Positions 25,635-33,952 of a stretch of DNA of 33,952 nt are shown in pieces. Position 1 is the first letter of the stretch. Each line of letters opens with the position of its first letter. Both the position numbers and the translations under genes were made by a program. The notes beneath the pieces are model-generated. The model was given only the letters and a program-made list of their open reading frames with translations. It did not search any database and had not been told where the DNA came from. Origin of the DNA: Thermodesulfovibrionia bacterium (GTDB lineage: Bacteria; Nitrospirota; Thermodesulfovibrionia; UBA6902; BMS3Bbin08); NCBI GenBank assembly GCA_030694425.1, contig JAUXYI010000044.1, forward strand, positions 1 through 33,952. Reading direction: 5' to 3'.

Positions 25635-25919
25635 ATGGATGTTTTATATAAATCTGCATTCAGGAAGTTTGTAAAAAAGCAGGCGAGATGCTTTCAGCTT
25701 GCCATTGAGGATGAAACAGAAAGGATAAAAAAAGATCCACGGATTGGAGAGGAAAAGAAAGGAGACCTTTCAGGATTCCGTGTTCACAAATTTAAATTCA
25801 GAGGACAGGAGTATTTGATAGCATATAGCGCGGAAAGCAATTGCCTGATTATGTATATGATAAACACCCATGAGAATTTTTACCGTAGCCTTAAACGATA
25901 TATAAGGGAGGTGGGATAG
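25635..25919 (+). CDS. RelE/ParE-type toxin
   Basis: 94 residues of RelE-like fold: KSAFRKFVKKQ at 6-16, a helix with DETERIKKDP, then the beta strands GDLSGFRVHKFKFRGQEYLI (43-62) and AYSAESNCLIMYMINTHENF. Such toxins cleave mRNA on the ribosome or block gyrase; the group here is closer to RelE/HigB. Toxin first, antitoxin two bases after the stop, as in HigBA-like order. Lies between the two tRNA-derived repeats, so it is cargo of the integrative element. Confidence 0.85.
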   Translation: MDVLYKSAFRKFVKKQARCFQLAIEDETERIKKDPRIGEEKKGDLSGFRVHKFKFRGQEYLIAYSAESNCLIMYMINTHENFYRSLKRYIREVG

Positions 25920-25921
25920 TC

Positions 25922-26221
25922 ATGATAACAGCGGAGAAGGTTTATAAAGAAATAATAGAATTGCCTTTAAAGGAGAGGGAGAAGCTTTTTGTGGTAATAG
26001 CAAGACGTGGTTTTGAGAAAGACCTTTACACGCATGAAGATGTCTTTAGTGATATAAGACAGTCTCCTTTTACCATCAAGGAAGCTGCAGAGTATTTTGA
26101 GGTTGCAGAGATAACAGTTAGAAGATGGGTAAAAGATGGCAGTTTGAAATCAAAGAGATTGGGCAGGAACATTGTGTTTGATGTAGATGTTCTTAAGGAA
26201 TTTAAGAAGAAGCGGGCATAA
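25922..26221 (+). CDS. Excisionase/MerR-like helix-turn-helix antitoxin
   Basis: 99 residues. The N-terminal half (MITAEKVYKEIIELPLKERE) is the kind of helical segment seen in antitoxins neutralising RelE toxins; the C-terminal half (about 50-97: FTIKEAAEYFEVAEITVRRW, then VKDGSLKSKRLG) is an excisionase-type winged helix (HTH_17) that likely autoregulates the pair. Starts two bases after the toxin stop; GGGAGGTGGG lies over the toxin's last codons. Confidence 0.85.
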   Translation: MITAEKVYKEIIELPLKEREKLFVVIARRGFEKDLYTHEDVFSDIRQSPFTIKEAAEYFEVAEITVRRWVKDGSLKSKRLGRNIVFDVDVLKEFKKKRA

Positions 26222-29857: not shown

Positions 29858-29968
29858 TTAAAAGTCGCGAGGTAATCCATTTCTTCGGGGTTGAGCCCTA
29901 TTAATTCTTCACATTCTGGTAAATCATTTAGGTTTTTTGTAATGTATAACTTTTTTATGATTTAAATC

Positions 29969-30115
29969 ATGAGGTCGTCCCTTGAAAAATATGGTATTGC
30001 CGGGACTATTCTTATGGAGAGGGCAGGGCTTGCAAAGGTATTAAAGCATAAGCTCACTGACGAGTGCCTGTCAATGACTCGTTCAAGTCCGCATTTTGTT
30101 AGCCCTTTTCTATAA
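29969..30115 (+). pseudogene. Truncated nnr (NAD(P)H-hydrate epimerase/dehydratase) at cassette-array edge
   Basis: The frame from ATG 29969 reads LEKYGIAGTILMERAGLAKV, the conserved N-terminal helix of Nnr/YjeF (usually ...YGIPGxxLMExAGxA), then enters the first attC-like site at 30046 and runs through it to a TAA at 30113. About 25 genuine codons remain of roughly 500. The place, directly after acpS, is where nnr normally stands. The 111-base gap before it (29858-29968) includes an antisense open frame (see findings) and a TGAT-N4-ATCA palindrome at 29957. Confidence 0.7.
30046..30105 (-). other. attC-like site 1 (end of cassette A)
   Basis: On the minus strand it begins GGGCTAACAAAATGCGGAC, with arms TGAACGAGT / ACTCGTCA, the left arm carrying one extra A, and ends GAGCTTATGC. 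The outer box is CTTATGC where GTTRRRY is the rule. 60 bases. Confidence 0.75.
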
Positions 30116-30150
30116 TTTTCTTAAGACACGAATATCAAATATAATTCATA

Positions 30151-30897
30151 CTATTTGTCAGGCAATGTCTGGCAGAAAGAGAGAACATCAAGCTGGTCTT
30201 TTAGAGTGAGAAAAAACAGAGAAATCATTTGAGCCCCGGGATGCCCCCAGCGGATTTTGTGTAAAGACTCCCATGGGTTTTTATTAGCTACTGTTCCGAT
30301 ATATTCTGGGTTTTTCTCGTCTTTGAAATTTATCTCCTTCCCGTCTTCACCATGGCATTTTATACATGTGCTCAAGTATATTCTGCCACCGCTTGCTGGA
30401 TCACCTATGCCCTTTCTAGTATCGCGATTAATATACAAGTCTACATCTACCTGCCCGTAAGCCACAAAAATTGCCAGTGCTTCTAATTCTTTGTCAAGTA
30501 TCATGCTGCCAAAAGCATGCGTATTATCTTTGAGTACCTTTATAATCTGCTCTGGCTTTTGGTTAGCATAAGACCTGATGCCAGTTATCCCTGTATAATG
30601 ACTGCCTGTTGAGTAAGCACCTGCCTTACCCTTATAATCCCATCCATGGCACTCCTTGCAACGCCATGTAGCCGCACCCTTCTTTTGACCAACTGCAGGA
30701 TAAGAGGGATGGGTTTTATCTATTTTTACCCCGAGCTCCTCAAACCAATTGTCATACAAAACTCCACCACGGACAAGTTGGGCAAATTCTCTACCTGTAA
30801 GTTTTCCAATTTCTTCAGCAGTAGATGATGAAACTGTAACTAACAACGCAAATACTGCCAGAATAAACAAGCAACATGCTATCTTTGTTTTTTTCAT
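30151..30897 (-). CDS. Periplasmic di-haem c-type cytochrome (cassette A)
   Basis: 248 residues. Signal peptide about 1-27 (CCLFILAVFALLVTVSSSTA). Two haem c sites: CKECH 80-84 and CIKCH 178-182, each at the head of a cytochrome c-like domain; possible distal Met at 132 (FGSMILDKE) and in GAQMISLFF near the end. The N-terminal domain (EFAQLVRGGVLYDNWFEELG and later WRCKECHGWDYKG) is like cytochromes found beside periplasmic oxidoreductases. It would carry electrons outside the membrane. AAGGAGG precedes the ATG. It fills one integron-type cassette, ending 46 bases before attC-like site 1. Confidence 0.93.
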   Translation of the reverse strand: MKKTKIACCLFILAVFALLVTVSSSTAEEIGKLTGREFAQLVRGGVLYDNWFEELGVKIDKTHPSYPAVGQKKGAATWRCKECHGWDYKGKAGAYSTGSHYTGITGIRSYANQKPEQIIKVLKDNTHAFGSMILDKELEALAIFVAYGQVDVDLYINRDTRKGIGDPASGGRIYLSTCIKCHGEDGKEINFKDEKNPEYIGTVANKNPWESLHKIRWGHPGAQMISLFFLTLKDQLDVLSFCQTLPDK

Positions 30898-30968
30898 TTA
30901 CATCCTCCTTTATTGAAATTTGAAACATAGTTTAGCACATCACACAGAGGTATGATAGTAATTATATT

Positions 30969-31096
30969 GGGCTAAGCTGACTGACGAGTGCCACTGAATA
31001 ATCTCAACATGCCTTAAACCGATTTGCATACCTAATAACAATGCTACCTAAAAAAAGCGTCCTGTGGCACTCGTTCATGTGCACGCAATGTTATGC
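30969..31096 (-). other. attC-like site 2 (end of cassette B)
   Basis: On the minus strand it begins GCATAACATTGCGTGCACA, long arms TGAACGAGTGCCAC / GTGGCACTCGTCA (extra A in the left arm) around a loop of about 70 bases, and ends CAGCTTAGCCC. As in site 1 the last box is CTT instead of GTT. 128 bases. Its first box contains the stop codon of the gene upstream. Confidence 0.8.
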
Positions 31097-31315
31097 AATT
31101 TTTTTCTGTTTTTTAATAATCTCAGTTAATGATCTTAATGCTTGATTTACAGAGTCATGATCAGGGAAAAATTTGGTAACATCAGGCTCAATAACTACAA
31201 CATTTGTTCCTTGTGCGTACCTCTTTGCATATTTTCCTTGAATGCCTTTGCTGAAATCATATTCTTCAAGCATGTCTCTATCTTTTAGCATTCTTTTCAT
31301 ATTGTTTCCTTTCAT
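31091..31315 (-). CDS. Small antitoxin-like protein (cassette B)
   Basis: 74 residues. RDMLEEYDFSKGIQGKYAKR and TNVVVIEPDVTKFFPDHDSV, then NQALRSL, are typical of a widespread family of small proteins found as antitoxin partners (YDFSKG..GKY...VVV.DPDV..FPD..SVN.ALR). No toxin gene is intact next to it. The TAA stop lies inside the first box of attC-like site 2 (GCATAAC), as in many cassettes. Possible starts at 31315 or five codons later. A transposase gene has been inserted upstream in the same cassette. Confidence 0.75.
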   Translation of the reverse strand: MKGNNMKRMLKDRDMLEEYDFSKGIQGKYAKRYAQGTNVVVIEPDVTKFFPDHDSVNQALRSLTEIIKKQKKIA

Positions 31316-31372
31316 TTTTTGTTGCTTTTCTTGTTCTCTAGTAGTAGAAATAGTAGAAATAGCATAGAAATA

Positions 31373-32403
31373 GGGTCGGGTCTACACATTACACAGCATT
31401 AACCTGCTGCAAATATATTTCATCTTTCTTCTCAGCTTTTTATCTTTATCCAATACTATATTAAACCGGCGACTTGTCTGTGATACAGATGATTCACCTA
31501 TATTAAAATGGTCTCCAATTTCCTTTAGAGTCCTCCCGCTATATTTATGGCATAAATAAATAGAAGCTTTCTTCGATAACGCCTCATCCCCTTTAAATAT
31601 TCCTTCCACTTCTCCTATGATTTCCTTTATTGATGCCTTCGTTAGTTCCGTTAAAGCAGGTAAATTACGGTCAGTCTCCTTTCCGCTTAGATATTTGTCT
31701 TTTATCTCATTAATAAAATCAATCCCTCCCAAAATAGTTGAAGCTACTGTATCTTTTAGTGGACTGTCATATTCTTTATCTACTAAGGCATTTACAAACT
31801 CGCTGTATCTTTTCTGTGCTATGGTTGTTTTACCTCCAAAATAATTAAGAATAAAGTCCGCTATAAGCCACTTAGGTATTTTCTTGCCGACATAGTATTG
31901 ATAACTTGACCAAAGATATTGCTCAGGCTTGCTCACAATACCAGCTCTGACAGGATTTAGATGGATATATCGGGAAAGCTCCCCTGCATATTCATCAGCA
32001 TCAACAAGTATTGCCTTATATCTTCCTTGAAAAAGATGTCCTGCCCTTTGCCTCCTGGTATTAAAGTAGGTTGTATATGCACCATTTATATGCCTCATGA
32101 TCTGAGAGAGGTTTCCCATAGGTGTCTCTAATAAAAGGTGATAATGATTGCTCATAAGGCAATAAACATGTATTACTGCTCCATATCGTTGGGTTGCTGT
32201 CTCCAGATATGTAAGAAATTTCTTAAAATCCTGTTCGCTTTTGAATATATCTTTTCGTTCATTACCCCGTGATGTAATATGATAAAACGCACCAGCGTAT
32301 TCTATCCTTAATTGTCGCGCCATGGTCAGGTCTTAAGTATAAAATCGGTGTTTCTATTTTTACATTAATTTACATTGTTTGTCAAGAGTGTAGACCTGAC
32401 CCC
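31373..32403 (-). mobile_element. REP-associated tyrosine transposase element inside cassette B
   Basis: The ends are 15-base inverted repeats: GTGTAGACCTGACCC at 32388-32402 and, complementary, GTGTAGACCCGACCC at 31387-31373 (one mismatch). About 1.03 kb with one gene. No target duplication is obvious. Without it cassette B would be about 480 bases, an ordinary size. Confidence 0.8.
31382..32323 (-). CDS. REP-associated tyrosine transposase (Y1_Tnp, RAYT type)
   Basis: 313 residues. The N-terminal Y1/IS200-like domain starts RQLRIEYAGAFYHITSRGNE; the metal-binding HUH pair is H60 and H62 in CLMSNHYHLLLE; the segment DEYAGELSRYIHLNPVRAGI (about 110-129) holds the candidate nucleophile tyrosines Y112 and Y119. 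The C-terminal part (YLCHKYSGRTLKEIGDHFN, then IGESSVSQT) is a DnaA/Trp-repressor-like helix-turn-helix. Such enzymes process hairpin DNA of REP type. The stop codon lies inside the element's left inverted repeat. Looks intact. Confidence 0.93.
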   Translation of the reverse strand: MARQLRIEYAGAFYHITSRGNERKDIFKSEQDFKKFLTYLETATQRYGAVIHVYCLMSNHYHLLLETPMGNLSQIMRHINGAYTTYFNTRRQRAGHLFQGRYKAILVDADEYAGELSRYIHLNPVRAGIVSKPEQYLWSSYQYYVGKKIPKWLIADFILNYFGGKTTIAQKRYSEFVNALVDKEYDSPLKDTVASTILGGIDFINEIKDKYLSGKETDRNLPALTELTKASIKEIIGEVEGIFKGDEALSKKASIYLCHKYSGRTLKEIGDHFNIGESSVSQTSRRFNIVLDKDKKLRRKMKYICSRLMLCNV

Positions 32404-32475
32404 TTTGACCCTCTCAAATATCAGGGTGGGTATATATTTTATCGTGGATTGTATTATGGTTTCTGTAATTTGCAT
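32404..32475 (-). pseudogene. 5' stub of the original cassette B gene
   Basis: ATG at 32475, eleven bases after the cassette start, opens MQITETIIQSTIKYIPTLIF and is cut by the transposase element after 24 codons. The short distance from cassette boundary to ATG is typical of cassette genes. Product not recognised. Confidence 0.4.
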
Positions 32476-32480
32476 TTTGT

Positions 32481-32610
32481 GCATAACGTCATGATGAGGG
32501 ATGCGGAATGAAAAGCATAAAAGTTATTAAATCAGAAAAAATATATGCTACCCAAATAACCTTAAAAAGGTCACAGCTATTCCGCATTCCTCTCGATCAA
32601 ATGGTTATAT
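32481..32610 (-). other. attC-like site 3 (end of cassette C)
   Basis: On the minus strand: ATATAAC box, arms GAGGAATGCGGAAT / ATTCCGCATCCCTC (one G-T type mismatch), a loop of about 70 bases, and the canonical end GACGTTATGC (GTTRRRY-like). 130 bases. Starts two bases after the stop codon of the HEPN-like gene. Confidence 0.85.
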
Positions 32611-32612
32611 TC

Positions 32613-33164
32613 TCAATAAACATTTTCTTTAATGTCTTTGGTTGAATTATAAGCAGTCTCTGAAAATCTAATGGCCTGTTCTAAGTGTCGATCATAATAA
32701 TCCTTTAAATTATCGGGGTACTGAGTATTACCTAACCCTCTGAGTTTTTTAATTAAATATTCATAGTAATAATAAGATGCTTCAATTCCCTTATCGAAAT
32801 CTGGATGGTGTGTTACACTTGGGTCCTTTTGATGATGTGAAATGAGGTTATTCCTATACGTTATCATATACTCCCAATAATCTTTCCAATCAGTTTCGTT
32901 TGATTTGACGCGTGCCAGCAGTTTAGCTCGAAAAGAAACATGATCATCGACAAGATTCTTCCAATGTGTCGGCTCGCTGTCAGTACCAAATATTTTGCAC
33001 CACTCTAGAATTACAAAGTCGAAGAAATTGTTTTGAATCATAATCCAATAATTTTGTGTAAATGTCCCTTGATATTTAGAAAGGGATTCATAATTTGCGG
33101 CATTGCGAATAACATAAACAAGTCTAAATATATGTTCTTTTAATTGTTGCTCTGTAATTGCCAT
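32613..33164 (-). CDS. HEPN-like protein (cassette C), function unknown
   Basis: 183 residues, all helical in pattern. WKDYWEYMITYRNNLISHHQ contains R-x5-H, the type of motif found in HEPN RNases and AbiU2-like abortive-infection proteins; upstream, NFFDFVILEWCKIFG is the usual preceding helix. If it is a HEPN nuclease, it could be a defence or toxin protein; this is an inference from one motif and the fold pattern. AAGGAGAGG precedes the ATG; the cassette boundary is only 19 bases upstream and the attC begins right after the stop, an ideal cassette. Confidence 0.8.
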   Translation of the reverse strand: MAITEQQLKEHIFRLVYVIRNAANYESLSKYQGTFTQNYWIMIQNNFFDFVILEWCKIFGTDSEPTHWKNLVDDHVSFRAKLLARVKSNETDWKDYWEYMITYRNNLISHHQKDPSVTHHPDFDKGIEASYYYYEYLIKKLRGLGNTQYPDNLKDYYDRHLEQAIRFSETAYNSTKDIKENVY

Positions 33165-33177
33165 GTCCTCTCCTTAA

Positions 33178-33232
33178 ATATAACGCAAAATTGAGGGGTG
33201 CGATTAGCATCCCCTCCAATGACTTGTTAGTC
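33178..33232 (-). other. attC-like site 4 (end of cassette D)
   Basis: On the minus strand: GACTAACAAGTCATT, arms GAGGGGATGC / GCACCCCTC with an extra A in the left arm, loop TAATC, then AATTTTGCGTTATAT. A compact 55-base site with both boxes canonical in the central AAC/GTT. Best-formed site of the array. Confidence 0.85.
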
Positions 33233-33798: not shown

Positions 33799-33952
33799 GG
33801 GTCAAGTCTTTACTTTTACTATGCGGTAGTTCCTGCAAGAAACAAGACCTGAACTTCCCATTTTGTTTTTTCAGTTTAACCTGAATCTTGCGTGAAACAA
33901 CATAATTTTACCTTTCTGGATTCCCGCTTACTGACTGCGGGAATGACGACCA
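33799..33952. repeat. Repeat-rich right edge: RAYT-end-like words and palindrome family A half copy
   Basis: GGGTCAAGTCTTTAC at 33799-33813 resembles the ends of the transposase element (GGGTCGGGTCTACAC), with ACAAGACCTGAAC about 30 bases later as a partial inverse. 33915-33952 is the right half of family A (CTGGATTCCCGCTTA...GCGGGAATGACG). No gene seen. Confidence 0.6.

What the first reader, a model, noticed from the sequence alone, without database searches (positions are those of the whole stretch)
30151..30897. Di-haem cytochrome c as a cassette cargo
Cassette A carries a complete exported cytochrome with two CxxCH sites. Respiratory electron carriers are an unusual cargo for integron cassettes, which mostly hold small unknown, toxin-antitoxin or resistance genes. 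It suggests shuffling of periplasmic electron-transfer parts.
Basis: partly seen in the sequence, partly recalled or inferred. Interest (0 to 1): 0.6.

Follow-up and report, generated by a model that had tools for sequence, protein, structure and literature searches.

The report
Di-haem cytochrome in integron cassette
A Nitrospirota bacterium carries an intact exported two-haem cytochrome gene inside a real integron gene cassette, a rare kind of cargo, but both recombination sites around it have lost their cutting sequence and no other genome examined carries it as a cassette, so it looks like one captured and now probably stuck gene rather than a shuffling system.

Summary
ORF 30151-30897(-) is an intact 248-aa exported class I di-haem cytochrome c (CKECH, CIKCH) that keeps all 38 near-invariant residues of its family. 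The cassette is real: an attC covariance model built only from five sites outside the window, three of them beside integron integrases, finds exactly four sites here, all on the gene strand. Two bound the cytochrome in a 924-bp cassette (30052-30975). The array has at least three cassettes and sits downstream of acpS, where relatives have nnrD. The cargo is unusual: none of 74 cassettes from relatives' arrays encodes a cytochrome (95% upper limit about 4%). The shuffling idea is not supported: single case, no partner oxidoreductase conserved next to homologues, no complete IntI in the assembly, and both bounding sites lack the G^TT cleavage triplet present in 93 of 102 family sites. Best reading: a resident-type Nitrospirota cytochrome captured as a cassette and now probably immobilised in an integrase-less array. 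It is a rare cargo in a known system. Interest is moderate.

The parts
30151..30897 (-). Exported di-haem class I cytochrome c, 248 aa; haem motifs CKECH (80-84) and CIKCH (178-182); inferred distal ligands His127 and Met224
   Evidence: ORF; Pfam; all 38 near-invariant family residues kept; AF2 mean pLDDT 87
30052..30975 (-). Cassette A (924 bp): cytochrome gene plus its 3' attC; R'' GGGCTAA near its end matches TTAGCCC at its start
   Evidence: Spacing of the two site copies 924; sequence read directly; attC model hits
30041..30104 (-). attC S1, 3' of the cytochrome; last site of the array; short loop; R' reads CTTTAAT or CTTATGC instead of GTTRRRY
   Evidence: R1 27.0 bits, E=2e-5 unfiltered; 21-nt exact match to an attC beside IntI in G034; R' defect
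30965..31096 (-). attC S2, 5' of cassette A and 3' end of cassette B; full-length member of the order's attC family; G^TT of R' missing, consistent with a 6-bp slippage deletion (TTAGCGTTAGCC to TTAGCC)
   Evidence: R1 103.1 bits, E=3.5e-26; 76% identity over 111 nt to the G034 IntI-linked attC
30976..32486 (-). Cassette B: 74-aa ORF (31091-31315) with an inserted REP-associated tyrosine transposase element
   Evidence: attC S2 and S3; ORF; transposase NF047646 above cut-off
31373..32402 (-). Inserted Y1/REP-associated tyrosine transposase element with 15-bp terminal inverted repeats; transposase 31382-32323
   Evidence: Inverted repeat I4; Pfam Y1_Tnp; NCBIfam
32482..32610 (-). attC S3 with canonical R'' and G^TT R'
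   Evidence: R1 32.5 bits; DNA fold z=-3.32
32487..33183 (-). Cassette C: HEPN/AbiU2-like ORF 32613-33164; cassette start TTATAT matches its R'' ATATAAC
   Evidence: Pfam PF18734 above cut-off; attC S3 and S4
33179..33232 (-). attC S4 with canonical R'' and G^TT R'
   Evidence: R1 22.8 bits; DNA fold z=-4.26
29966..30043 (+). Fragment of nnrD abutting the distal end of the array; an intact nnrD lies on contig C30
   Evidence: tblastn hits; near-identical DNA to the C30 copy; relatives have nnrD after acpS

Best explanation
An ordinary chromosomal type of Nitrospirota di-haem cytochrome c gene was captured as a gene cassette by an integron of the kind resident in this order. It lies as the last detected cassette of an array inserted between acpS and the former nnrD position. 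SHOWN: the gene, its two bounding attC sites, the other cassettes, the gene-to-attC orientation, the family's attC being IntI-linked in relatives, and absence of a complete IntI from this assembly. INFERRED: capture by IntI-mediated attC recombination; later loss of mobility because both bounding sites lost the G^TT cleavage triplet and no integrase remains; expression from a weak promoter in the 88-nt leader rather than from the integron promoter Pc; and function as a Sec-exported, periplasmic electron carrier (haem 1 probably His/His through His127, haem 2 His/Met through Met224) between a periplasmic or membrane oxidoreductase and the respiratory chain. The partner is unknown.
For: Independent attC model finds only the four array sites in 34 kb, all on the gene strand. 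The attC family occurs in 40 of 61 related genomes, and 28 of 61 have IntI above cut-off; sites of the family lie next to IntI in G034, G001 and G017. Each cassette's start matches its own R''. The longest ORF is sense to the attC in 68 of 74 relatives' cassettes, as here. The acpS neighbourhood in relatives has nnrD or other genes and never the cytochrome. The gene falls inside the order's own clade with a short end branch of 0.19 against a median of 0.29 and keeps all near-invariant residues. No IntI above cut-off in the genome. R' triplet lost in S1 and S2 but present in S3, S4 and 93 of 102 family sites.
Against: S1 is short, scores only 27 bits and does not fold better than shuffles; its identity rests on sequence match. 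S1 and S2 lack G^TT, so excision cannot be assumed now. The contig ends at 33952, so an integrase beyond the contig cannot be excluded in this 96%-complete, 101-contig MAG. A 54-aa stretch 63% identical to an IntI C-terminus exists on C61. Expression and haem ligation are not measured.
Confidence: 0.82

Rival explanations
1. The cytochrome is a resident chromosomal gene of the acpS region, and the attC-like repeats around it are chance palindromes or unrelated repeats.
For: S1 and S2 lack the G^TT core; a REP-type transposase sits nearby.
Against: Model built outside the window finds S2 at E=3.5e-26 and all four sites on one strand; sites of the family lie beside IntI in relatives; no relative has the cytochrome by acpS; homologues lie elsewhere.
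Confidence: 0.04
2. The cassette is fully mobile and part of active exchange of periplasmic electron-transfer genes among Nitrospirota integrons.
For: Integrons and this attC family are widespread in the order; the cargo is intact.
Against: 0 of 74 cassettes from relatives encode cytochromes; no homologue locus is flanked by attC; both bounding sites lack G^TT; no complete IntI in the assembly.
Confidence: 0.1
3. The cassette is silent cargo: an intact-looking but unexpressed gene at the end of an array, on its way to decay.
For: Distal position, no Pc in sight, no promoter-like hit in the leader on the gene strand, altered attC sites, while chromosomal homologues such as L098 and L102 carry a TTGACA/TATAGT-like promoter upstream.
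Against: All near-invariant residues kept and no lengthened branch; a GGAGG ribosome site and an extended -10-like TGCTAAACT lie in the leader (sequence).
Confidence: 0.3

Closest known systems
Sedentary chromosomal integron arrays and CALIN elements (clusters of attC sites lacking integrase; IntegronFinder, PMC9024848)
   Same: At least two attC sites, gene then attC in one orientation, no complete integrase in the assembly, imperfect palindromes with extra bases on the L'' side, cassettes with self-matching R boxes
   Different: Cargo is a respiratory-type cytochrome; the two sites around it lack G^TT; the missing integrase may be an assembly effect
Chromosomal di-haem cytochrome c homologues in Nitrospirota and Pseudomonadota (L015-L116)
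   Same: About 40-72% identity, same two CxxCH motifs, same conserved His and Met residues, no fixed operon partner
   Different: None of the 107 examined loci has flanking attC sites; this copy is inside a cassette
Cassette proteins with signal peptides in environmental surveys (PMC10963911)
   Same: Exported product carried as a cassette
   Different: Those are mostly of unknown function; this one is a recognisable electron carrier
TsdA thiosulfate dehydrogenase and QcrC di-haem cytochromes (PDB 4wqd, 6adq_C)
   Same: Two class I cytochrome c domains; best Foldseek matches
   Different: TM-scores only 0.23-0.28, 15-17% identity, different domain arrangement; membership not claimed

Membership tests
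Integron gene cassette (attC-bounded) | attC site at the 3' end of the gene with R''/L''/L'/R' architecture | tested here: met
   R1 hit S1 27.0 bits and S2 103.1 bits on the gene strand; R'' boxes GGGCTAAC and GCATAAC present
Integron gene cassette (attC-bounded) | Conserved G^TT cleavage triplet in R' of both bounding sites | tested here: not met
   S2 ends AGCTTAGCCCAATAT and S1 AGCTTATGCTTTAAT; 93 of 102 family sites have GTT there; membership is therefore claimed by origin, not as a currently mobile cassette
Integron gene cassette (attC-bounded) | Site family linked to an integron integrase | tested here: met
   Same attC family beside IntI in G034, G001 and G017; not beside an IntI in this genome
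Integron gene cassette (attC-bounded) | IntI-dependent excision and integration | not testable with these tools
   Needs a recombination assay
CALIN | Two or more attC sites without a nearby integrase | tested here: met
   Four sites, no IntI above cut-off in the genome; the contig ends 720 bp after S4, so the integrase could lie beyond
Class I di-haem cytochrome c | Two CxxCH motifs in two cytochrome c domains with Sec signal | tested here: met
Thiosulfate dehydrogenase TsdA | TsdA-like overall fold and active-site haem with Cys ligand | tested here: not met
   TM-score about 0.24 at 15% identity; Cys is conserved only within the CxxCH motifs in the alignment
cbb3 oxidase subunit CcoP | NCBIfam TIGR00782 above cut-off | tested here: not met
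   22.8 bits against a cut-off of 179.95

The most novel reading that the evidence does not exclude
Nitrospirota integrons recruit respiratory electron carriers as cassettes and then fix them by inactivating the G^TT core of the bounding attC sites, a route from mobile cassette to resident gene.
Probability: 0.12. Interest if true: 0.65.

Novelty: new member of a known kind. Interest (0 to 1): 0.4.

Why it matters
Integron cassettes with a recognisable metabolic role are rare, and a full-text search found no paper reporting a c-type cytochrome as a cassette (an absence in an open-access library only). It shows that a complete periplasmic electron carrier can be packed into a 924-bp cassette. 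The work also yields an attC family shared across this Nitrospirota order that can be used to survey its cassettes, and a concrete example of a cassette whose two bounding sites have both lost their cleavage triplet.

Tried and rejected
Rejected: conserved operon after acpS; chance palindromes; reversed gene orientation, first suggested by the G^TT on the + strand of S1 and S2 but overturned by the orientation of the same sites beside IntI in G034 and by the extra bases on the - strand L'' arm; a second cytochrome copy in the genome. A degraded 35-aa remnant of the same cytochrome in G002 is in an ordinary chromosomal setting, with no hit to the attC model.

Full report
The window is an entire contig (C14, 33,952 bp) of a 2.42-Mb, 101-contig, 96%-complete genome. 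Its acpS is closest (89% identity) to a genome of the same family, and the named records behind its relatives are titled Nitrospirae, Nitrospiraceae or Thermodesulfovibrionia bacterium, so it is a Nitrospirota MAG and the contig is not obviously foreign.

The gene. ORF 30151-30897(-) encodes 248 aa with a hydrophobic N-terminus and two CxxCH motifs. Pfam assigns Cytochrome_CBB3 (2.4e-9) and Cytochrom_C (4.8e-8), both above cut-off. It matches no NCBIfam equivalog above cut-off. It keeps all 38 residues conserved in at least 93% of 90 homologues, including both haem motifs, His127, His213 and Met224. AlphaFold2 gives a confident model with mean pLDDT 87. Foldseek finds only weak similarity to TsdA and to QcrC-type di-haem subunits (TM 0.23-0.28), so no enzyme function is claimed. 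A periplasmic electron carrier with bis-His and His/Met haems is an inference from the conserved residues.

The cassette boundaries. By eye the flanks look like attC sites, and the + strand even carries G^TT, which first suggested that the gene lies backwards in its cassette. BLAST of the sites against fetched loci changed this. The S2 site is 76% identical over 111 nt to an attC lying just after the integrase and first cassette of G034 (IntI E=2.6e-135), where the orientation relative to IntI is known, and similar sites lie beside IntI in G001 and G017. In that orientation the attC is 3' of the gene, on the - strand, as is normal.

To test this without circularity I built a covariance model from five such sites, none from the window. 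Searched over the whole window without filters it reports four sites, all on the - strand, at 103.1, 32.5, 27.0 and 22.8 bits; the next match has 14.2 bits and E=0.06. The array thus holds cassette A (cytochrome, 924 bp, equal to the spacing of the two site copies), cassette B (74-aa ORF, interrupted by a REP-associated tyrosine transposase element with 15-bp terminal repeats) and cassette C (HEPN/AbiU2-like ORF). The first bases of A, B and C (TTAGCC, TTATGC, TTATAT) match R'' boxes in the array (GGGCTAAC, GCATAAC, ATATAAC), as expected of cassettes that once were circles (sequence).

How common is this. In 61 related genomes the attC family occurs in 40 and an IntI above the curated cut-off in 28, so integrons are normal in this order. 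From the fetched array regions I delimited 76 cassettes, 74 with an ORF. In 68 of 74 the longest ORF is in the sense orientation. None encodes a c-type cytochrome: the only CxxCH occurrences are an HNH-like protein and a short antisense ORF. Pfam matches among the 74 are led by PIN and HTH domains, methylases and toxin-antitoxin parts. With 0 of 74 the 95% upper limit is about 4%. A hydrophobic N-terminus is found in 25 of 74, so export alone is not unusual; published figures run from 11-14% with signal peptides to an estimated third with signal peptides or transmembrane domains (PMC10963911).

Homologues. A scan of 84,980 species genomes found 416 relatives, the best 80 kept, and 23 of 61 genomes in the relatives set (own included) carry a homologue. 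Contexts vary: 19 of 67 have no same-strand neighbour within 300 bp, and no neighbour family occurs in more than 8 of 67 loci. None of 107 homologue loci is bracketed by attC-like sites. The specific model gives no hit at E<=1 in the first 26 genome-contig loci and the 27 whole-genome loci and none at E<=0.1 in the other 54; a generic finder gives no more hits than shuffled sequence. In six relatives with a readable acpS downstream region the cytochrome is absent; nnrD or other genes stand there. In the tree the window protein lies inside the order's clade with a short end branch. The origin is therefore most simply within the order, and the gene is not accelerated.

State of the sites. In 93 of 102 family sites the R' region holds GTT; S3 and S4 have it, but S1 and S2, which bound the cytochrome, do not. 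S2 reads AGTCAGCTTAGCCCAATAT; with the cassette's own R'' GGGCTAAC one expects AGTCAGCTTAGCG^TTAGCCCAATAT, so a 6-bp slippage deletion between the two TTAGC copies explains it (inference). S1 reads AGTGAGCTTATGCTTTAAT, has a short loop and does not fold better than shuffles. No IntI above cut-off is in the assembly; only a 54-aa stretch 63% identical to an IntI C-terminus is found, on contig C61. Cassette A is therefore probably immobile today.

Insertion locus. The distal end of the array abuts a short nnrD fragment (29966-30043) nearly identical in DNA to the 5' part of an intact nnrD on contig C30. Relatives G001, G003, G013 and G038 have nnrD downstream of acpS. The array thus lies at the former acpS-nnrD junction; how nnrD moved is not resolved.

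Verdict. The wider claim of shuffling electron-transfer parts rests on one case and is not supported. It is a rare cargo in a well-known system.

Noticed in passing
29966-30043: Short nnrD fragment next to the array, nearly identical in DNA to the 5' part of an intact nnrD on contig C30; relatives have nnrD downstream of acpS, so the array marks a rearrangement point.
   Followed up: partly
31373-32402: REP-associated tyrosine transposase element with 15-bp terminal inverted repeats inserted inside cassette B.
   Followed up: partly
32613-33164: HEPN/AbiU2-like ORF as the cargo of cassette C; another AbiU2-like cassette ORF was found in this genome's C51 array (L233:1679-2143).
   Followed up: no
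33880-33952: Contig ends in a repeat that also lies upstream of nnrD on contig C30, a likely cause of the assembly break.
   Followed up: partly
25635-26221: ParE-like toxin gene followed by a helix-turn-helix ORF (possible toxin-antitoxin pair) outside the array.
   Followed up: no
L171:3328-3432: Degraded 35-aa remnant of the same cytochrome (77% identity, two stops) in a genome of the same family, in an ordinary chromosomal setting.
   Followed up: partly
G000 contigs C51, C25, C22, C23, C45, C64, C69: Further sites of the same attC family across this genome (14 in all with the two in the window), including a small array on C51.
   Followed up: partly
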